Below, one piece after another: positions 1 to 57,649 of a DNA stretch of 64,000 nt. Every line of letters starts with the position of its first letter. The stretch's first letter is position 1. Under the pieces are notes generated by a model. That model did not search any database. It had not been told where the DNA came from and was given only the letters and a program-made list of their open reading frames with translations. This stretch comes from Tildeniella torsiva UHER 1998/13D (GTDB lineage Bacteria; Cyanobacteriota; Cyanobacteriia; Phormidesmidales; Phormidesmidaceae), in assembly GCA_019358835.1 (NCBI GenBank), contig JAHHIH010000021.1:1-64000 (forward strand), written 5' to 3'. A program made the position numbers and the translations under genes.

Positions 1-170
1 GTGGGGGGGGCGGGGGGTGGGGTGGTGGGGGTGGTGGTGGGGGGGTGGGGGGGGGGGGGGGGGGGGGGTCGGGGGTGAGGGTGTCACTTGCCCTACCTCC
101 CTTACCTCCCTTATGTCCGCACTCCCCACCCCCCACTCCCCACCCCCCACAGCTTCAGCCTTCAGCCACA
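1..170. repeat. G-rich low-complexity tract inside kinase frame
   Basis: Positions 1-70 are almost pure G with interspersed T (GGTGG units). Positions 70-170 hold short repeats of GGAGGTAAG type (read on the minus strand) and CCCCAC type. On the minus strand the tract stays open in the kinase frame and encodes Pro/His runs. Similar tracts occur at 9335-9490 and 63327-63469, so this is a recurring simple-sequence class in this genome. Homopolymer length here may be inaccurate. Confidence 0.8.
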
Positions 171-2551: not shown

Positions 2552-3628
2552 CTAGGGCATTGCTCCGGGGCTTTCATAGCTAGGCGATACCGTCTCGTCC
2601 CCCGCCGCAAGCAGCAGCGATCGCTTCAGCAGCTCCAGTCGGTCGGTCAGCTGGGGCCGCAGCTGGTGGTGGGGCGCAGTGCGCAGCAGCAGCTCGATCG
2701 TCTCCGCCACCGCCGATGCCTGAGTATAGCCAAACAGCCCCAGCCCTCCGGCCAGGCGGTGGGCTTCGGCGATCGCCAACTGCCGCTGTTCGGGGCTAAA
2801 GGTGCCAGCCGTAAGGGCCTGTATGGCTCCGTCTAAGACCCCCAGCCGCTGCTCAAGGGAGGCTCGAAACCGCTGAGTGGCCTGCTGCATCACCCGATCT
2901 AGCCGGGGCGAGGGCGGGCTGGGCAGGTGGGCTAAGGAAGCCTCGGGCTCGTCTTGGGGCACGGCCTTGAGCCGATAGCCCAGCCCATAAACCGTTTCAA
3001 TGGGGCTGGCCACCAGGCCCGCCGCCTTCAGCCGCTGGCGCAGGTCTTTGATCAGGTTGGTGACTGAGCCTTCGACCGGGGTGTCGGCCATGGGCCACAG
3101 GTGATCGATAATGGCGCTGCGGGTCAGCATCCGCTGGGGGTGGCGCAAAAACAGCTCGAGTAGCTCGTATTCTTTGGGGCGGCAGGCAATGGGCTGGTGG
3201 CGGTAGGTCACCTGGGTCAGGGCCGGGTCGAGGCGCAGCTCACCCCAGCTCAGAATTGGTGCGGCAGCGCTACTGCGGCGCAGCAGTGCCCGCACCCGCG
3301 CCAGCAGCTGTGCCGCATCGCAGGATTTGGCTAAATAGTCGTCGGCACCAGCATCTAGTCCGGCGACAATGTCGGCACTGGCCGCCTTGCTCGTCAGCAT
3401 CAGAATGGGGGTGCGGCTGCCCTGGGCCCGCAGGCGGCGACACACCTCTAAACCGTCTAGGGTGGGCAGCATCCAGTCAACAATCAGCAGATCGTAGGGC
3501 CAGCAGCTGGCTAAATCGAGGCCGGTAGCGCCGTCGGCGATCGCATCGACAGCGTAGCGATGGGTCGCCAGGGTATCAGCTAGAAACTCACTGGTGGATG
3601 GATCATCCTCTAGCAGCAGTATTTTCAT
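2552..3628 (-). CDS. Response regulator, REC-wHTH-Hpt fusion
   Basis: OmpR/PhoB-type DNA-binding response regulator with an extra C-terminal phosphotransfer domain, 358 aa. Residues 1-115 form the receiver domain: acidic pocket E7-D8-D9, phospho-acceptor D51 in LLIVDWMLP, conserved Lys near 101. Residues about 125-222 form the winged helix, with the usual ending ETVYGLGYRL. Residues about 245-345 look like an Hpt domain with AEAHRLAGGLGLFG, placing the phosphorylatable His at 290; the usual Lys after HxL is Ala here. It precedes the histidine kinase gene by 58 bases on the same strand, so the two are probably one operon. REC-wHTH-Hpt is an uncommon order and suggests a phosphorelay step inside the regulator. 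The ATG at 3626-3628 lacks a strong Shine-Dalgarno sequence. Confidence 0.88.
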   Translation of the reverse strand: MKILLLEDDPSTSEFLADTLATHRYAVDAIADGATGLDLASCWPYDLLIVDWMLPTLDGLEVCRRLRAQGSRTPILMLTSKAASADIVAGLDAGADDYLAKSCDAAQLLARVRALLRRSSAAAPILSWGELRLDPALTQVTYRHQPIACRPKEYELLELFLRHPQRMLTRSAIIDHLWPMADTPVEGSVTNLIKDLRQRLKAAGLVASPIETVYGLGYRLKAVPQDEPEASLAHLPSPPSPRLDRVMQQATQRFRASLEQRLGVLDGAIQALTAGTFSPEQRQLAIAEAHRLAGGLGLFGYTQASAVAETIELLLRTAPHHQLRPQLTDRLELLKRSLLLAAGDETVSPSYESPGAMP

Positions 3629-3770: not shown

Positions 3771-6683
3771 TTAGGCGGACCTATGGCTTTGCTGCTGAAT
3801 AAACGTTTCCATCTGGTCAGAGGGCAGCGGTGGCGCAATCCAGTAGCCCTGAAACGCGTCACAGCCCAGCTGCTCCAGTCGGCCAATCTGAAATTCGGTT
3901 TCGCCCCCTTCGGCGATCACCGTCATACCCAGCGACTTGGCAATCTGAATAATGGCTTTGACAATGCTGACGTCGTCGTGGTCAACGTCAATATTTTCGA
4001 CAAACGACTGGTCAATCTTGAGGGTATTGATGGGGAATTGCTTCAGATAGCTGAGGGATGAATAGCCAGTGCCAAAGTCATCAATTTTGATATCAATGCC
4101 CTGGGCCTGGAGGTGCGACAGCGTCGAGAGCACGCCCTTTACGTTCAGCAGCAGCAGACTCTCGGTCACCTCTAGACCCAAATTCATGGCTGGCAGCGAT
4201 GTCCGTTCCAGAATGGCCTTGATCTGCTCAAAAAAATCGGGCTGCTCAAAATGCGCCGCCGCCACATTCACATTCATTGTCAGCCCCTTGACCACCGGAA
4301 ACCGCTGCCGCCAATCGGCCATCTGGCGGCAGGCGGTCTCAAAAATCCAGGCGCTGAGGGGAATGATCAGCCCCGTTTCCTCGGCGAGGGGAATAAATTC
4401 GCCGGGGGCAATCAGCCCGCGCTGGGGATGCACCCACCGCACCAGAGCCTCAAACCCCAGCAGCTGCCGATTGGCCAAGCTGACGATCGGTTGATAGTAG
4501 AGGATGAAGTCTTGGCGCTCTAGGGCCTGGCGCAGATGGGTTTCTAGCTCAAACAGCGCGATCGCGCTGGTGTGCATAGCCGGGCTAAAAATTTCGTAGC
4601 CAGACGACTGCCCCCCGGCCTTGGCCCGATACATGGCGTTGTCGGCATCTCTCAGCATGTCTTCGCCCCGGTGGTAGTCGGGGCTAGATAGGGCAATGCC
4701 CAGGCTGGCGGAGGTAAAGACCATGTGGCCCATCAGCGTAAACGGCGCTTTGATGTCTCCCTGAATGCGCTCCACCACCTGGATGGCCTCGTGTAGACTA
4801 TCAATTTGCTCTAGCAAAATGACAAACTCATCGCCCCCCAGGCGGGCTACAGTATCGCTAGCCCTGACGTGGCGCTGCAGAATGTGGGCAATTTGCACCA
4901 GCAGCTGATCGCCCACCAGATGGCCCAGACTGTCGTTGATTACCTTGAAGCGGTCTAGGTCGATAAATAAAACGGCAAACAGCTGGTCTGGGTAGCGCTT
5001 GACCCGCTGCACCGCCTGATCGAGGCGCTCGGTGAACAGGGTGCGGTTGGGCAGGCCGGTGAGGGCATCGTGCAGGGCCTGGTGGCGCAGTTCTTCTTCG
5101 GCTAATTTGCGATCGCTGATGTCGATAAAGGTCACCACCACCTGGGTCAGCCGCTGGGCCGCGTCAAATGTGGGAAACGCGTTGACCAAAACCCAAATAC
5201 AGTGCTGCTGCTGGGGGGAGCAAATGCCCAACACGTAGTTTTGTAGCGGGCTTTGGCGGGCGATCACCTGATTGACTGGATACTGCTCTGCTGACAAGGT
5301 CGCGCCGGTTTCATCCACCATGGGCCAGGTCGACTGGTCGGTGCGGTGGCCGATCATGACCTCCGCTGGCAATCCCAGGATTTGCGCCGCCATGTGGTTA
5401 CACATCACAATGCTCGTATCGGCGGCATGGACAACGACCCCAGCATGGAGATGATTGACCAGGAGCCGGTAATCAGCCTCACTGTGGCGTAGTTTTTCAA
5501 GGGCAACTTCTAAGGAGTGGGCCTGATCTTGCAGCGCTTGATTTGCCGTGGCCAGAGCCTCGGTGCGCTGATCGACCCGTTGCTCTAGGGTATCTAAGGT
5601 TTGCCGCAGCTGGCTCACCATATGGTTAAAGGCCTGGGCCACCGCCGTAAATTCGTTGTCTCCTGCGATCGCCAGGGGCTGGCTCAGGTCTTGCTGGGCA
5701 ATGCGATCGGCGGCGATCGCCATCAGCGTTAGGGGGGTCATAATCCGTCGCCCCAGCAAAACGCTGGCCCAGATCGCCAGAGCCAGGGCGGTTAAGGCCG
5801 TGGCCAGCAGGGCGGCGCTGCTCTGGTTGGCGGTGTTGGCTAGTTCCAGGCGGGCCTGAGCCGAGCGGGCGGCGGAGCGATCGCTGACGGTTTGAATAAT
5901 CTCGTTGATGTCTCGGTTGATATTGGCCGCAATGATGCGGTTAACCTGCACCTGCTGATCGAGAAACAGCAGCGCATTGAGGGAGAGCATGTAGGTTTGC
6001 ACCAGCGCCTGGGCCTCAGGGTCTAACGTTCCCGCTGGCAACCGATCCAGCGTTGCCGACAGCTGATCCAGTCCCGATTGCAGATCGTCGAGATAGGCGG
6101 GGTCTTGGGTATTCAGGTAGGTCTGCTGCTCAGCCATCAGCTGCCACACCAGCATCCGCAGGTTTAGGGTCTCTGATCGCTGGCTGTTGGGCAGGGTGGC
6201 GAGCAACTCCTTGAGCTGCTGGTGAACCTCATGGTTCAGACTGTCCTCCTCAATGCGGCGAGTGGTGGTTTCAAAGGCCGATTCGTAGTTGTTAAACAGC
6301 GAATCCAGCAGGGTAAATTCTTCGGTCAGCTCAGGGTTTCGCGCTTCTAATTCCCTCAGAGCGGCTAAATTCTGGCGGGCCTGGGCCAAATAGGCCTGGT
6401 TGGTTTGCCCATGCAGCCGGGCGTTGGCGTCGATATTGCCCCCTTGCCAGGTATCAAAATAGGCCTCCTCAGCCTGCCGCGCCAGCAAAAAGTTGGTTTT
6501 TAGCTCTAAGCTCAGCTCCCGCAGCTGCGCAGCATTGTCGAGGGTGGTCTGGCTGCGGTGCCGCAGCCGCTGCAAACTGCCGTAGCCAATGGCCGCGCTG
6601 ATGCCGTGCAGCAGCAAAATAATGCCAAACCCCAGCATGAGCTGAGCCCGAATGGTCTTAAACCACCGCAGACGGTTGATCAT
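3771..6683 (-). CDS. HAMP-PAS-GGDEF-EAL cyclic-di-GMP turnover protein
   Basis: Predicted inner-membrane protein that makes and/or degrades c-di-GMP, 970 aa. TM1 is at about 12-32 and a helical periplasmic sensor region at 35-285. TM2 is at about 288-311, then HAMP (312-365), coiled coil and a PAS domain (400-525). The GGDEF domain has an intact GGDEF at 616-620 and an RxxD inhibitory site (RASD, 607-610). The EAL domain starts with FEAL near 744-747 and keeps DDFGTGYSSL and the KIDQSF region. Both enzymatic signatures look intact, so it may be bifunctional. I chose the ATG at 6681-6683 because it overlaps the stop of the upstream binding-protein gene as ATGA. A longer reading would run into that gene in another frame. 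The coupling suggests that the binding protein delivers a ligand signal to this sensor. Confidence 0.92.
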   Translation of the reverse strand: MINRLRWFKTIRAQLMLGFGIILLLHGISAAIGYGSLQRLRHRSQTTLDNAAQLRELSLELKTNFLLARQAEEAYFDTWQGGNIDANARLHGQTNQAYLAQARQNLAALRELEARNPELTEEFTLLDSLFNNYESAFETTTRRIEEDSLNHEVHQQLKELLATLPNSQRSETLNLRMLVWQLMAEQQTYLNTQDPAYLDDLQSGLDQLSATLDRLPAGTLDPEAQALVQTYMLSLNALLFLDQQVQVNRIIAANINRDINEIIQTVSDRSAARSAQARLELANTANQSSAALLATALTALALAIWASVLLGRRIMTPLTLMAIAADRIAQQDLSQPLAIAGDNEFTAVAQAFNHMVSQLRQTLDTLEQRVDQRTEALATANQALQDQAHSLEVALEKLRHSEADYRLLVNHLHAGVVVHAADTSIVMCNHMAAQILGLPAEVMIGHRTDQSTWPMVDETGATLSAEQYPVNQVIARQSPLQNYVLGICSPQQQHCIWVLVNAFPTFDAAQRLTQVVVTFIDISDRKLAEEELRHQALHDALTGLPNRTLFTERLDQAVQRVKRYPDQLFAVLFIDLDRFKVINDSLGHLVGDQLLVQIAHILQRHVRASDTVARLGGDEFVILLEQIDSLHEAIQVVERIQGDIKAPFTLMGHMVFTSASLGIALSSPDYHRGEDMLRDADNAMYRAKAGGQSSGYEIFSPAMHTSAIALFELETHLRQALERQDFILYYQPIVSLANRQLLGFEALVRWVHPQRGLIAPGEFIPLAEETGLIIPLSAWIFETACRQMADWRQRFPVVKGLTMNVNVAAAHFEQPDFFEQIKAILERTSLPAMNLGLEVTESLLLLNVKGVLSTLSHLQAQGIDIKIDDFGTGYSSLSYLKQFPINTLKIDQSFVENIDVDHDDVSIVKAIIQIAKSLGMTVIAEGGETEFQIGRLEQLGCDAFQGYWIAPPLPSDQMETFIQQQSHRSA

Positions 6684-8107
6684 GGCGACCCCTCGCCCGC
6701 CATCAGCTGCTGCACGGTGGTCTGGAGCTGGTCGGCGGCCAGGGCAGGCTCTACCCCGTCGTAGATGTCGTGAATGGTCGCCGCGATCGCCAGGGCCACC
6801 TGGTTCCATTTAGGGTGCAGCACCGCCGTCGGGCGCGAGGTTTGCATAGCGGTTTGCACGGCCAGGGCATAGTCAACATTAATAGCCTCGGTGTAGACCG
6901 ACGGCGTCAACCAGCTCGAAAACCGGGGTGCCCCCCCCGTTGCCACGGCAATTTTAGCCTCCATCGCCTGGCTGGTGGCCCACTGAATAAACAGCCAGGC
7001 CGCCTGGGGCTGGCGAGCCCGCCGGGGAATGCCGAGCCCCCACAGCCAGTGGCCCGTCAGGCTCTGCTGGTGAACCCGAGGCAGCACGGTATAGCCGACC
7101 TGACCGGCGATCGCAGAGGTGTCCCGCTGCTCAAAGTCTGGCCCAAACAGGCTGGCATCAATGTAAAACGCCGCTTTCCCTGCCTGAAAGAGCTGGGTGG
7201 CCTCGGGCCAGTTCATTTGTTTGATATTGGCTGGCCCCGCCTGCATCAGCCGGGCGTAGGTGGTCAACCCCTCGACAATGCGAGGATCATTCAGGCAGGG
7301 CTGTTGCCAGTCGCCGTCGAACCACAGGTTAAAAGGCAGCGGGGTCGGCTCAGCCCCCCAACCGTTGAGCACAATTCCCGATACCGTATCGATAATGGCG
7401 TCAGACTTAACCCCGCGCATGACTGCCCCCAACGCCTGTCCGCTCTGGTTGATCTCGGTCGCGGCCTGCACCAGCTCGGCCATGGTTTGGGGCACCCGAC
7501 CCGCCAAAAATTGATTCACCAGGCGCTTGTTATAGAACAGAATATACGCTTCAAAGGTGGCGGGGATGCCAAAGAGCTGCTGGCTACCGCTGTTGGGTGG
7601 ATACATGGCGGCCAGCCGAAAGCCTTCGGGGAAGTCAAACAGGTTGTAGCTAGCCGCCGTCAGCGTCGGGTCGTTCAGCAACGGCGTCAGCGGTAGCAGC
7701 AGATCGTCTCCCCACAGACGGTAGGCCGTCGAATCCATCGGCAGGAAAAAGGCATCCGCCTGCACGGGGTCAGCCCGCAGAATGGCTTCCATCTCAGCAA
7801 AGTACGCCGGTTCCGCCACCATGCGAGGCTTCAAGGTGATGCCCGTCAAGGCCTCAAATTCTGGCAAGTAAGGCTGAATGCCGCTGGTCCAGGGATGGTC
7901 ATCCAGCAGTAGCCCAATCTCATCCCCCGCAAACCGTCGCCAGTCAAACTTTGGGTCAAAATCGATCGCAGCTTCTCCAGTAGGGGATCGTGCCGATTGA
8001 CGGCAGGTCGTGGCCAAGGTTGTTAAGACCCCTGACGCTACCGCAAGTTGCATAAATCGACGGCGTCTGAAGCTCCTTATAGAACCAGAAAATGGTTTTG
8101 GTATCAT
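6680..8107 (-). CDS. ABC-type extracellular solute-binding protein, probable sensor partner
   Basis: Periplasmic solute-binding protein of the sugar-binding (family 1-like) type, 475 aa. The N-terminus has an arginine-rich export signal FRRRRFMQLAVASGVLTTLA followed by TTC. This resembles a Tat signal with a poor lipobox, so lipidation is uncertain. The body has features of this family (YNKRLV in the hinge region, WPEATQLFQAGKAAFYID, and the AWLFIQWATS region near the C-terminus). No ABC permease or ATPase gene is nearby. Its stop overlaps the start of the GGDEF-EAL gene by four bases. I infer a role in ligand sensing, not transport. The substrate is unknown. Confidence 0.85.
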   Translation of the reverse strand: MIPKPFSGSIRSFRRRRFMQLAVASGVLTTLATTCRQSARSPTGEAAIDFDPKFDWRRFAGDEIGLLLDDHPWTSGIQPYLPEFEALTGITLKPRMVAEPAYFAEMEAILRADPVQADAFFLPMDSTAYRLWGDDLLLPLTPLLNDPTLTAASYNLFDFPEGFRLAAMYPPNSGSQQLFGIPATFEAYILFYNKRLVNQFLAGRVPQTMAELVQAATEINQSGQALGAVMRGVKSDAIIDTVSGIVLNGWGAEPTPLPFNLWFDGDWQQPCLNDPRIVEGLTTYARLMQAGPANIKQMNWPEATQLFQAGKAAFYIDASLFGPDFEQRDTSAIAGQVGYTVLPRVHQQSLTGHWLWGLGIPRRARQPQAAWLFIQWATSQAMEAKIAVATGGAPRFSSWLTPSVYTEAINVDYALAVQTAMQTSRPTAVLHPKWNQVALAIAATIHDIYDGVEPALAADQLQTTVQQLMAGEGSP

Positions 8108-56326: not shown

Positions 56327-57649
56327 TCAATCCAGCAGAGCCAGGGCCTCAGTCAGCGGCAGAGGACGGCTGAATAAAAAGCCCTGGCCAATGTCGCAGC
56401 CCATCGATTTTAGGGCCGCCATCTGGGCCGGGGTTTCAATGCCCTCAGCCACGGTGGGCAGGCCCAGCTGGCGGGCGATGTCGATAATTGAGCCAACGAG
56501 AATTTTGGCGCGATCGCTGCTGCACAGTTTTTGAATAAACGACTGATCGATTTTTAGACAGTCAATTTCGCAGCGTTCTAGGTAGTTGAGGCTAGAGTAG
56601 CCCGTGCCAAAGTCGTCGAGGGAAACCTCGAACCCGGCGGCGCGACACTTGCCGATAGAGTCGATCGCCTCAACCTCATTCAAAAAGATGCGCTCTGTCA
56701 CCTCCAGCTTAATTTGCTGGGCATCAACGCCGTGGCGCTGGGTGCAGGCAATCAACCGTTCAAAAAAGTCGGGCTGCTGAAACTGGCGCACCGAGATGTT
56801 GATGCTAATAAAAAAGTCGGTGCTGCTCTGGCCAAGACTCTCTAAATGGGTTTGAAAGCGGCATAGATCGGCACAGGAATGCTCTAAAATCCAGTCGCCC
56901 ATGGGCAAAATTAGCGACGTTTCTTCGGCCAAAGCAATAAAGCGCTGGGGAGTAACCGCACCGCGCTGGGGGCACTGCCACCGCAGCAGCGCCTCAAAGC
57001 CCACAATGGTGCCATTGGTGAGGTTAATAAGGGGTTGATACACCAGCGATAAATCGTCGTTGCGGACGGCATTTTGCAGGTCAGACTCCAGTTTAATGTC
57101 GTCTAAGATTTCTTGATATTGCTGACTTCTGGCGTAGGCTTGCTCGGTGACGGCGGGGCGGGGCAGGCTAATTTGCGGGGTCGCTAGCGTTCTCAGGTAG
57201 GCGTTGTAGGCCCGATTGCGGTGCAGCGACATCGAGATAAACAGCCGCACCATGGGCGACGACGACTCAATACGCTCGGCCACCTGAGCTGCCGACACCA
57301 CCATGCAGCGGCAGGGGCTCAGGGCCTTGGCTGAGGCCGACCGGGGCGAGGCGTCAATAATACCCATTTCCCCAAAAATATCTCCAGCCCCCAGCACATT
57401 GAGCTGGAGTGAATCGTCCCCCGTGCCCACAAAAATTTCAACGTAACCTGACTCAAGAATGTAGGCTTTATCGGCGGTGCTGCCCTCGATAAAAATGGTT
57501 TCACCAGCCGTAAACAGGCGAATGTTGCAGTTAGGGGCGATCGCAATGTCAGCCGCCAGACCAGTACCGTCGCCGTCTTCGGGGGCAGGTTCCATGGGGA
57601 CTAATGAACCGGGTGGTAAAGGGCAAGACAAATGAGGAATATTTTTCAT
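56327..57649 (-). CDS. Cyclic-nucleotide-binding EAL phosphodiesterase
   Basis: Cytoplasmic c-di-GMP phosphodiesterase with an N-terminal cNMP domain, 440 aa. The cNMP domain (about 30-150) has IFVGTGDDSLQLN, the phosphate-binding-cassette-like GDIFGEMGIIDASPRSASA, and the conserved Arg-Ser pair. The EAL domain (about 195-435) has FEALLRW, TERIFLNEVEAID, DDFGTGYSSLNYLERCEIDCLKIDQSF and the C-terminal EGIETPAQ. Catalytic residues look intact. cAMP or cGMP binding would control c-di-GMP breakdown. A perfect CRP-type operator lies 138 bases upstream of its ATG. Confidence 0.93.
   Translation of the reverse strand: MKNIPHLSCPLPPGSLVPMEPAPEDGDGTGLAADIAIAPNCNIRLFTAGETIFIEGSTADKAYILESGYVEIFVGTGDDSLQLNVLGAGDIFGEMGIIDASPRSASAKALSPCRCMVVSAAQVAERIESSSPMVRLFISMSLHRNRAYNAYLRTLATPQISLPRPAVTEQAYARSQQYQEILDDIKLESDLQNAVRNDDLSLVYQPLINLTNGTIVGFEALLRWQCPQRGAVTPQRFIALAEETSLILPMGDWILEHSCADLCRFQTHLESLGQSSTDFFISINISVRQFQQPDFFERLIACTQRHGVDAQQIKLEVTERIFLNEVEAIDSIGKCRAAGFEVSLDDFGTGYSSLNYLERCEIDCLKIDQSFIQKLCSSDRAKILVGSIIDIARQLGLPTVAEGIETPAQMAALKSMGCDIGQGFLFSRPLPLTEALALLD

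What the first reader, a model, noticed from the sequence alone, without database searches (positions are those of the whole stretch)
3771..8107. Solute-binding protein without a transporter, translationally coupled to a GGDEF-EAL receptor
A periplasmic ABC-type binding protein gene overlaps a HAMP-PAS-GGDEF-EAL gene by ATGA, and no permease or ATPase gene is nearby. The receptor has a large helical periplasmic domain. This looks like a dedicated ligand-sensing module in which the binding protein reports a sugar or similar ligand to c-di-GMP output. The overlap and domains are seen; the signalling role is inferred.
Basis: partly seen in the sequence, partly recalled or inferred. Interest (0 to 1): 0.7.

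Follow-up and report, generated by a model that had tools for sequence, protein, structure and literature searches.

The report
Sugar-type binding protein coupled to c-di-GMP receptor
Some filamentous cyanobacteria carry a sugar-importer-type binding protein whose gene overlaps not a transporter gene but the gene of a membrane receptor that probably makes and breaks the messenger c-di-GMP, which looks like a device for tasting an outside molecule without importing it.

Summary
A MalE-type binding protein with a Tat/lipoprotein-like leader (6680-8107, -) overlaps by ATGA a TM-periplasmic-TM-HAMP-PAS-GGDEF-EAL receptor (3771-6683, -). In 19 of 19 genomes found with the binding protein the receptor gene follows directly, overlapping by 1-10 nt in 18. 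In 388 genomes of the class, binding protein and receptor periplasmic domain, searched apart, occur in the same 15. No match to nine importer permeases lies beside the pair in 26 stretches. Two candidate permeases elsewhere do not co-occur strictly, though one is commoner with the pair and the other is in all 11 pair genomes of the genus; the first lies near another binding protein in 6 of 6 relatives. The periplasmic domain models as a TorS/McpS-like helical bundle; TorS is driven by a binding protein. GGDEF, RxxD and EAL catalytic residues are intact in 10 of 10 aligned. Best reading: a binding-protein-gated c-di-GMP receptor that works like NspS-MbaA, with a sugar-type instead of a PotD-type sensor. 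Contact, ligand and signalling are inferred. New variant of a known kind.

The parts
6680..8107 (-). solute-binding protein gene (475 aa, MalE-type, SBP_bac_1)
   Evidence: ORF; Pfam SBP_bac_1 2.2e-20 and SBP_bac_8 4.4e-16; best PDB sequence matches are sorbitol-, sugar-, trehalose/maltose- and sulfoquinovose-type binding proteins
8003..8107 (-). export leader: twin arginine (R15, R16) and cysteine C35, invariant in 17 of 17 aligned rows (17 of 19 genomes); lipobox weak
   Evidence: alignment A5; Tat/lipoprotein reading is from recalled motifs
6965..7885 (-). SBP_bac_1 domain
6680..6683 (-). ATGA overlap of the two genes (translational coupling inferred)
   Evidence: sequence; in relatives
3771..6683 (-). 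receptor gene, 970 aa, TM-periplasmic-TM-HAMP-PAS-GGDEF-EAL
6573..6647 (-). transmembrane segment 1 (residues 13-37)
   Evidence: hydropathy
5823..6572 (-). periplasmic helical domain (residues 38-287), TorS/McpS-like in the model
   Evidence: AlphaFold2 model, VIA-align 2
5748..5822 (-). transmembrane segment 2 (residues 288-312)
   Evidence: hydropathy
5601..5759 (-). HAMP domain
   Evidence: Pfam 3.3e-13
5118..5474 (-). PAS domain
   Evidence: Pfam 7.3e-08
4605..5078 (-). GGDEF domain, GGDEF motif and RxxD I-site intact
   Evidence: Pfam 2.7e-49; invariant in 10 of 10 rows of A2
3828..4538 (-). EAL domain, catalytic residues intact
   Evidence: Pfam 8.4e-75; named residues invariant in 10 of 10 rows of A2

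Best explanation
A dedicated two-protein extracellular sensor. The MalE-type binding protein is exported (probably by Tat and probably lipid-anchored), catches a small molecule, most likely a sugar or polyol, in the periplasm and docks on the helical TorS/HBM-like periplasmic domain of the co-made receptor. Docking, or its change on ligand binding, moves TM2 and the HAMP, and through the PAS shifts the balance between the GGDEF (synthesis) and EAL (breakdown) halves, so that the outside ligand sets c-di-GMP without being imported. Shown: gene order, overlap, conservation as a unit, domain content, intact catalytic motifs, no importer permease of the kinds searched beside it, fold of the receptor domain in a model. 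Inferred: translational coupling, export route, ligand class, contact, signal direction, output.
For: 19 of 19 genomes with the binding protein have the receptor directly downstream, 18 of 19 overlapping. In the same 388 genomes, binding protein and periplasmic domain are found in the same 15. Flanks change while the pair stays: the response regulator and kinase behind it are in 4 of 16 stretches tested, two of the 12 misses ending right behind the receptor. None of nine permease queries matches in 26 stretches that hold the pair, from 19 genomes. Of the nearest non-orthologous binding proteins, 5 of 5 examined of one type sit in complete SBP-MalF-MalG-MalK operons. The periplasmic domain aligns nearly end to end with McpS (Z 16.0, rmsd 3.7, 212 of 235) and V. 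parahaemolyticus TorS (Z 15.1, rmsd 4.5, 205 of 229). Among distant members the binding protein is better conserved (59-67%, 8 rows) than the sensor domain (41-50%, 7 rows), as expected if ligand recognition is kept. Known precedent with the same layout: nspS and mbaA overlap by 3-16 bp in most species (PMC9993111, passages).
Against: No call shows contact, ligand or a c-di-GMP effect. The model of the binding protein failed (pLDDT 47.4), so pocket and interface are unseen. The fold match is not clear-cut: a four-helix chemoreceptor domain (6s37, Z 16.0, 139 of 139) and a designed bundle (6egc, Z 15.4, 138 of 147) score as high over part of the domain, and Foldseek has no match at E<=0.001. 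The C41 sugar permease is commoner with the pair: 11 of 15 genomes against 48 of 373 without it. The lone C40 sugar permease is in 11 of 11 pair genomes of the genus and 12 of 15 others, so a shared permease stays possible. 41 of 43 permease hits were not tested for co-occurrence. The receptor frame is interrupted in 2 of 19 genomes while the binding-protein frame is whole. A review notes that SBP_bac_1 and SBP_bac_8 members mix in its tree (PMC9602780, passage), and this protein matches both, which weakens the ligand guess.
Confidence: 0.72

Rival explanations
1. The binding protein feeds a transporter encoded elsewhere and is merely co-transcribed with a c-di-GMP enzyme that responds to something else (for example through its PAS domain).
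For: The genome has 43 permease hits, some without a neighbouring binding protein; the C41 sugar permease is commoner in genomes with the pair, 11 of 15 against 48 of 373; the C40 one is in 11 of 11 pair genomes of the genus.
Against: C41-type permease is missing from 4 of 15 pair genomes, and in 6 of 6 relatives examined (2 with the pair, 4 without) a C9-type binding protein lies within about 3.2 kb of it. The C40 permease is also in 12 of 15 genomes of the genus without the pair. The pair is kept adjacent in 19 of 19.
Confidence: 0.13
2. The binding protein is both a transport and a signalling protein, as maltose-binding protein is: it shares a generic sugar permease and also reports to the receptor.
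For: The lone C40 sugar permease is present in 11 of 11 pair genomes of the genus; loaded maltose-binding protein acts on a chemoreceptor (PMC6321045, passages).
Against: The subfamily is sharply set off from transport binding proteins: class hits at E<=1e-30 are the orthologues only, the next best are about 30% over part of the length. The C40 permease does not need the pair (12 of 15 without it).
Confidence: 0.12
3. The binding protein is a ligand-free structural or adaptor partner of the receptor that no longer binds a solute.
For: Ligand unknown; model too poor to see a pocket; one sugar-contact tryptophan of 1eu8 (recalled) is an alanine here.
Against: It is more conserved than the receptor's sensor domain, and two positions aligned with sugar contacts of 1eu8 (contacts recalled, alignment) are invariant in 17 of 17 rows: E186 and W356.
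Confidence: 0.07

Closest known systems
NspS-MbaA (Vibrio cholerae, Sinorhizobium meliloti)
   Same: Binding-protein gene immediately upstream of, and mostly overlapping, a TM-periplasmic(about 230 aa)-TM-HAMP-GGDEF-EAL gene (PMC8079147 and PMC9993111, passages).
   Different: NspS is PotD/PotF-like and binds polyamines; here the binding protein is MalE-type, and none of the 46 PDB sequences matched at E<=0.1 is named PotD or PotF. MbaA has SGDEF and no RxxD site; here both GGDEF and RxxD are intact. A PAS domain is added. The published survey looked at proteobacterial genomes only.
TorT-TorS (trimethylamine oxide sensing)
   Same: Periplasmic helical domain of similar fold in the model that docks a periplasmic binding protein (PMC6321045, passages).
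   Different: TorT is another binding-protein family and TorS a histidine kinase, not a c-di-GMP enzyme (both recalled).
ScrB-ScrC (Vibrio parahaemolyticus; recalled, only a fragment of a reference title seen)
   Same: Periplasmic binding protein plus GGDEF-EAL receptor encoded together (recalled).
   Different: Comes with ScrA, a signal-making enzyme (recalled); no third gene is conserved with the present pair among the neighbours tested.
CUT1 (MalEFGK-type) ABC importers
   Same: The binding protein is of the same Pfam family, and most of its nearest relatives examined serve such importers.
   Different: No MalF/MalG-type match beside it.

Membership tests
NspS-MbaA system | binding-protein gene directly upstream of and overlapping a GGDEF-EAL receptor gene | tested here: met
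   19 of 19 adjacent, 18 of 19 overlapping
NspS-MbaA system | receptor: two TMs around a periplasmic domain of about 230-250 aa, HAMP, GGDEF, EAL | tested here: met
NspS-MbaA system | binding protein PotD/PotF-like | tested here: not met
   none of 46 PDB sequences at E<=0.1 is named PotD or PotF (most bear sugar names, some only general ones); the genome's own PotD-like protein (named by eye) matches mainly in the leader, E 0.006, against 231 aa at E 6e-9 for its MalE-type protein
NspS-MbaA system | sequence kinship of the sensor domain with MbaA | not tested
   no MbaA sequence was at hand
NspS-MbaA system | polyamine-controlled c-di-GMP | not testable with these tools
   needs assay
TorS/HBM-type helical bimodular sensor | two stacked helical bundles over the whole domain | tested here: inconclusive
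   McpS Z 16.0, 212 of 235; TorS Z 15.1, 205 of 229; but a four-helix chemoreceptor domain (Z 16.0) and a designed bundle (Z 15.4) tie over part of it, and Foldseek E is 4.5e-3 at best
TorS/HBM-type helical bimodular sensor | match to a Pfam sensor-domain profile | tested here: not met
   no HBM or PilJ model among the families listed at E<=1 for the 11 members; the commonest is CHASE3, 4 of 11, best 0.016, under its cut-off in the member shown
CUT1 sugar ABC importer | SBP_bac_1 binding protein | tested here: met
CUT1 sugar ABC importer | permease genes beside it | tested here: not met
   no match to nine permease queries at E<=1e-4 in 26 stretches that hold the pair; a MalK-like ATPase (28-31%) 3-7 kb away in 3 of them
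CUT1 sugar ABC importer | a permease elsewhere that strictly co-occurs | tested here: inconclusive
   two candidates tested, neither strict; 41 other permease hits not tested
catalytic GGDEF-EAL enzyme | GGDEF motif, RxxD, and EAL metal/base residues | tested here: met
   GGDEF 616-620, R607/D610, E745, N806, E838, E841, D868, D869, K889, E925, Q945 invariant in 10 of 10 rows (10 of 19 genomes); one row reads ESL for EAL; roles recalled

The most novel reading that the evidence does not exclude
A sugar/polyol importer's binding protein was captured by a c-di-GMP receptor in Leptolyngbya-type cyanobacteria and now acts only as an external taste receptor: a first binding-protein-gated c-di-GMP system in cyanobacteria and a first built on a MalE-type protein, letting phototrophic mats set attachment or motility by sugars or osmolytes leaking from neighbours, without eating them.
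Probability: 0.48. Interest if true: 0.62.

Novelty: new variant of a known kind. Interest (0 to 1): 0.47.

Why it matters
For most c-di-GMP enzymes the outside signal is unknown (stated for GGDEF/EAL enzymes in PMC8079147, passage). Here the ligand could be fished out directly: a binding protein that should be soluble without its leader can reveal it, and the conserved co-made receptor gives the read-out. It would extend binding-protein-gated c-di-GMP signalling from polyamines in proteobacteria to, probably, sugars or polyols in cyanobacteria, and it suggests a route of origin: an importer's binding protein re-used for sensing.

Tried and rejected
Transport partner on contig C41: looked promising (MalF-MalG-MalK without a binding protein in this genome, commoner in pair-bearing genomes), but in 6 of 6 relatives examined a C9-type binding protein lies within about 3.2 kb, so it was set aside; in the own genome that C9-type gene is on another contig. 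Lone sugar permease on C40: in 11 of 11 pair genomes of the genus but also in 12 of 15 others; not a strict partner, not excluded as a shared one. A conserved third gene: the response regulator and kinase behind the pair are in 4 of 16 stretches (L039 and L040 end too early to tell); aldolase, LptA and glycosyltransferase neighbours in 0 of 16. Polyamine ligand: not favoured. Structure of the binding protein: predicted, too poor to use. Complex of the two proteins: not attempted, the tool folds one chain. Comparison with MbaA: no sequence at hand. Sensor domain by sequence profile: no sensor-domain hit in PDB beyond the TM2-HAMP part and none in Pfam over cut-off. Promoter/terminator scan gave only consensus matches and was not used. 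The class searches score only the best few candidates per genome (4, 7, 6) and the genome-contig scan uses two short peptide patterns, so distant relatives of the pair may have been missed. Alignment A1, used, has 10 rows but two loci are in it twice.

In print: eight searches of the open library listed no paper on a cyanobacterial binding-protein/GGDEF-EAL pair, judged from titles and starts of abstracts; two lists were cut (20 of 82, 5 of 1,999), and the library lacks most subscription papers. One search gave the NspS-MbaA papers. A review passage says that, of the binding-protein clan as receptor domains, only SBP_bac_3 had been studied in c-di-GMP networks (PMC8846402, passages).
Full report
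OBSERVATION. The two genes are at the stated place. The first encodes a 475-aa solute-binding protein of Pfam SBP_bac_1 (2.2e-20; also SBP_bac_8, 4.4e-16). Its leader has a twin arginine (R15, R16) and a cysteine (C35) that are invariant in 17 of 17 aligned rows, 17 of the 19 genomes, which reads as a Tat lipoprotein leader, although the residues before the cysteine fit a lipobox poorly (motifs recalled). The second gene starts at the ATG that overlaps the TGA of the first (ATGA, 6680-6683) and encodes 970 aa: two hydrophobic segments (13-37, 288-312) around about 250 residues that are helical in the model, then HAMP, PAS, GGDEF and EAL. In 10 of 10 aligned receptors (10 of 19 genomes) the GGDEF motif, the RxxD site five residues before it and the usual EAL-domain residues are invariant; one row (L042) reads ESL for EAL (roles recalled). 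Both activities are therefore possible. The window's own copy has EGGE where the other 9 rows have EGVE.

CONSERVATION. In 57 genomes (own genome and relatives) the orthologous binding protein (64-100% identity) is in 13. The class search adds two. That makes 19 distinct genomes. In 19 of 19 the receptor gene follows on the same strand. The junction is a 4-nt ATGA overlap in 12, a 1-nt overlap in 5 (one of these also offers a TTG three bases earlier), a 10-nt overlap in 1, and a gap of 2 or 5 nt in 1. The receptor frame is interrupted in 2 of 19 (G020 = L033/L043, and L053). Record names include Nodosilinea, Leptolyngbya, Phormidium, Halomicronema, unnamed filamentous cyanobacteria, one 'unicellular cyanobacterium' and one MAG labelled Crocosphaera; in the class sample all 15 are in one family, 3 of 159 genera.

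CO-OCCURRENCE. In the same 388 genomes of the class the binding protein (E<=1e-30) and, searched apart, the receptor's periplasmic domain (E<=1e-6) were found in the same 15 genomes and in no others; each search scored only the best 4 or 7 candidates per genome. Within the own genus 11 of 26 genomes have the pair. Genomes are related and the genes adjacent, so one deletion removes both; this supports a unit but is not a probability.

NO TRANSPORTER BESIDE IT. None of 43 BPD_transp_1 hits of the genome is on the window's contig. Nine permease proteins of the own genome (sugar, polyamine-like, phosphate-like and peptide-like, named by eye or) were searched at E<=1e-4 in 27 stretches: 26 that hold the pair, from 19 genomes (the window, 12 relatives' stretches, 13 contig loci; L043 left out as a duplicate), and the next 20 kb of the own contig. 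None matched. A MalK-like ATPase (28-31%) lies 3-7 kb away in 3 of them (L038, L042, L053). The genome has one complete sugar importer with its own binding protein (C2), lone sugar-type binding proteins on C9 and C36, a lone MalG on C40, and a MalF-MalG-MalK operon on C41. The C40 MalG is in 23 of 26 genomes of the genus: 11 of 11 with the pair and 12 of 15 without. The C41 MalG is in 12 of 26 of the genus (8 of 11 with, 4 of 15 without) and 59 of 388 of the class: 11 of the 15 with the pair and 48 of the 373 without, a partial association. In 6 of 6 relatives examined (2 with the pair, 4 without) a C9-type binding protein lies within about 3.2 kb of this C41-type permease, so it seems to have its own partner. 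The other 41 permease hits were not tested, and a permease shared with another system is not excluded.

ORIGIN. The binding protein has no close paralogue in the own genome (1 match at E<=0.001, itself). The best non-orthologous relatives elsewhere (about 30% over part of the length) were looked at in 8 genomes. Five (L124-L128) are of one type and 5 of 5 sit in a complete SBP-MalF-MalG-MalK operon with sugar/polyol-type neighbours (named by eye); three (L129-L131) resemble the C2 protein, one with MalF-MalG beside it and two with no such match. Best PDB sequence matches are sorbitol-, sugar-, trehalose/maltose- and sulfoquinovose-binding proteins. A library review states that almost all SBP_bac_1 members are predicted sugar binders, but also that SBP_bac_1 and SBP_bac_8 mix in its tree (PMC9602780, passages). 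In the alignment with 1eu8 invariant E186 and W356 fall on two sugar-contact positions that I recall for that protein; another contact, a tryptophan, is an alanine here. A sugar or polyol is therefore the likeliest class, not shown.

RECEPTOR DOMAIN. The AlphaFold2 model of residues 1-400 (17 rows, pLDDT 73.9, pTM 0.56; 10-residue means 75-93 over residues 41-280) aligns nearly end to end over its periplasmic part with McpS (Z 16.0, rmsd 3.7, 212 of 235), V. parahaemolyticus TorS (Z 15.1, rmsd 4.5, 205 of 229), TorS from the TorS-TorT complex (3o1i, Z 14.3, rmsd 6.7, 211 of 270) and, lower, E. coli TorS (12.4) and PilJ (13.2). Against this, the four-helix chemoreceptor domain of PcaY_PP ties at Z 16.0 over 139 residues, a designed bundle scores 15.4 over 138, and the tool warns that for helical bundles Z under about 13 may mean only a common arrangement; Foldseek's best E is 4.5e-3, and Pfam finds no known sensor domain over cut-off. 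I take the bimodular fold as likely because only those matches cover the whole domain. TorS is docked by TorT, and the helical bimodular chemoreceptor CtpL is driven by the binding protein PstS (PMC6321045, passages), so this kind of domain is a known docking platform.

MECHANISM AND KIND. It works like NspS-MbaA: nspS lies immediately upstream of mbaA (PMC8079147, passages), the genes overlap by 3-16 bp in most species surveyed, and S. meliloti MbaA has periplasmic residues 24-256, HAMP, SGDEF and EAL (PMC9993111, first part of the text and passages). There the norspermidine-loaded binding protein favours c-di-GMP synthesis and its absence favours breakdown. The present pair is not a member by the tested feature of a PotD-like binding protein. 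It has instead a sugar-type sensor, an extra PAS, intact GGDEF and RxxD, and cyanobacterial hosts. Hence 'new variant of a known kind'. Direction of the effect and the phenotype are unknown.

Noticed in passing
L095:1532-6520 (own genome, contig C41) and L118:7177-12412: A sugar-type MalF-MalG-MalK operon is followed directly by a PAS/GGDEF protein of 577 aa; in G008 the order is MalG, GGDEF protein, C9-type binding protein. The GGDEF gene matched in 1 of 6 relatives' stretches examined; a second possible link between sugar uptake and c-di-GMP.
   Followed up: partly
L033/L043 (G020, FACHB-60) and L053 (SIOISBB): The receptor reading frame is interrupted while the binding-protein frame is whole; sequencing error and decay were not told apart.
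   Followed up: no
window 2552-3628 (-): OmpR-type response regulator with a C-terminal Hpt domain, followed by a multi-PAS histidine kinase (about 1-2493, -; by eye); both present behind the pair in 4 of 16 stretches.
   Followed up: partly
window 1-170: Very G-rich low-complexity start of the window, which is also the start of contig C4; the kinase frame runs into it, probably an assembly edge.
   Followed up: no
window 56327-57649 (-): A cyclic-nucleotide-binding-like N-terminus joined to an EAL-like domain (by eye), another possible c-di-GMP gene in the window.
   Followed up: no
L124-L128: Complete sugar/polyol ABC operons with kinase- and dehydrogenase-like neighbours (by eye) in relatives; the own genome shows no such close match to the window's binding protein.
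   Followed up: partly
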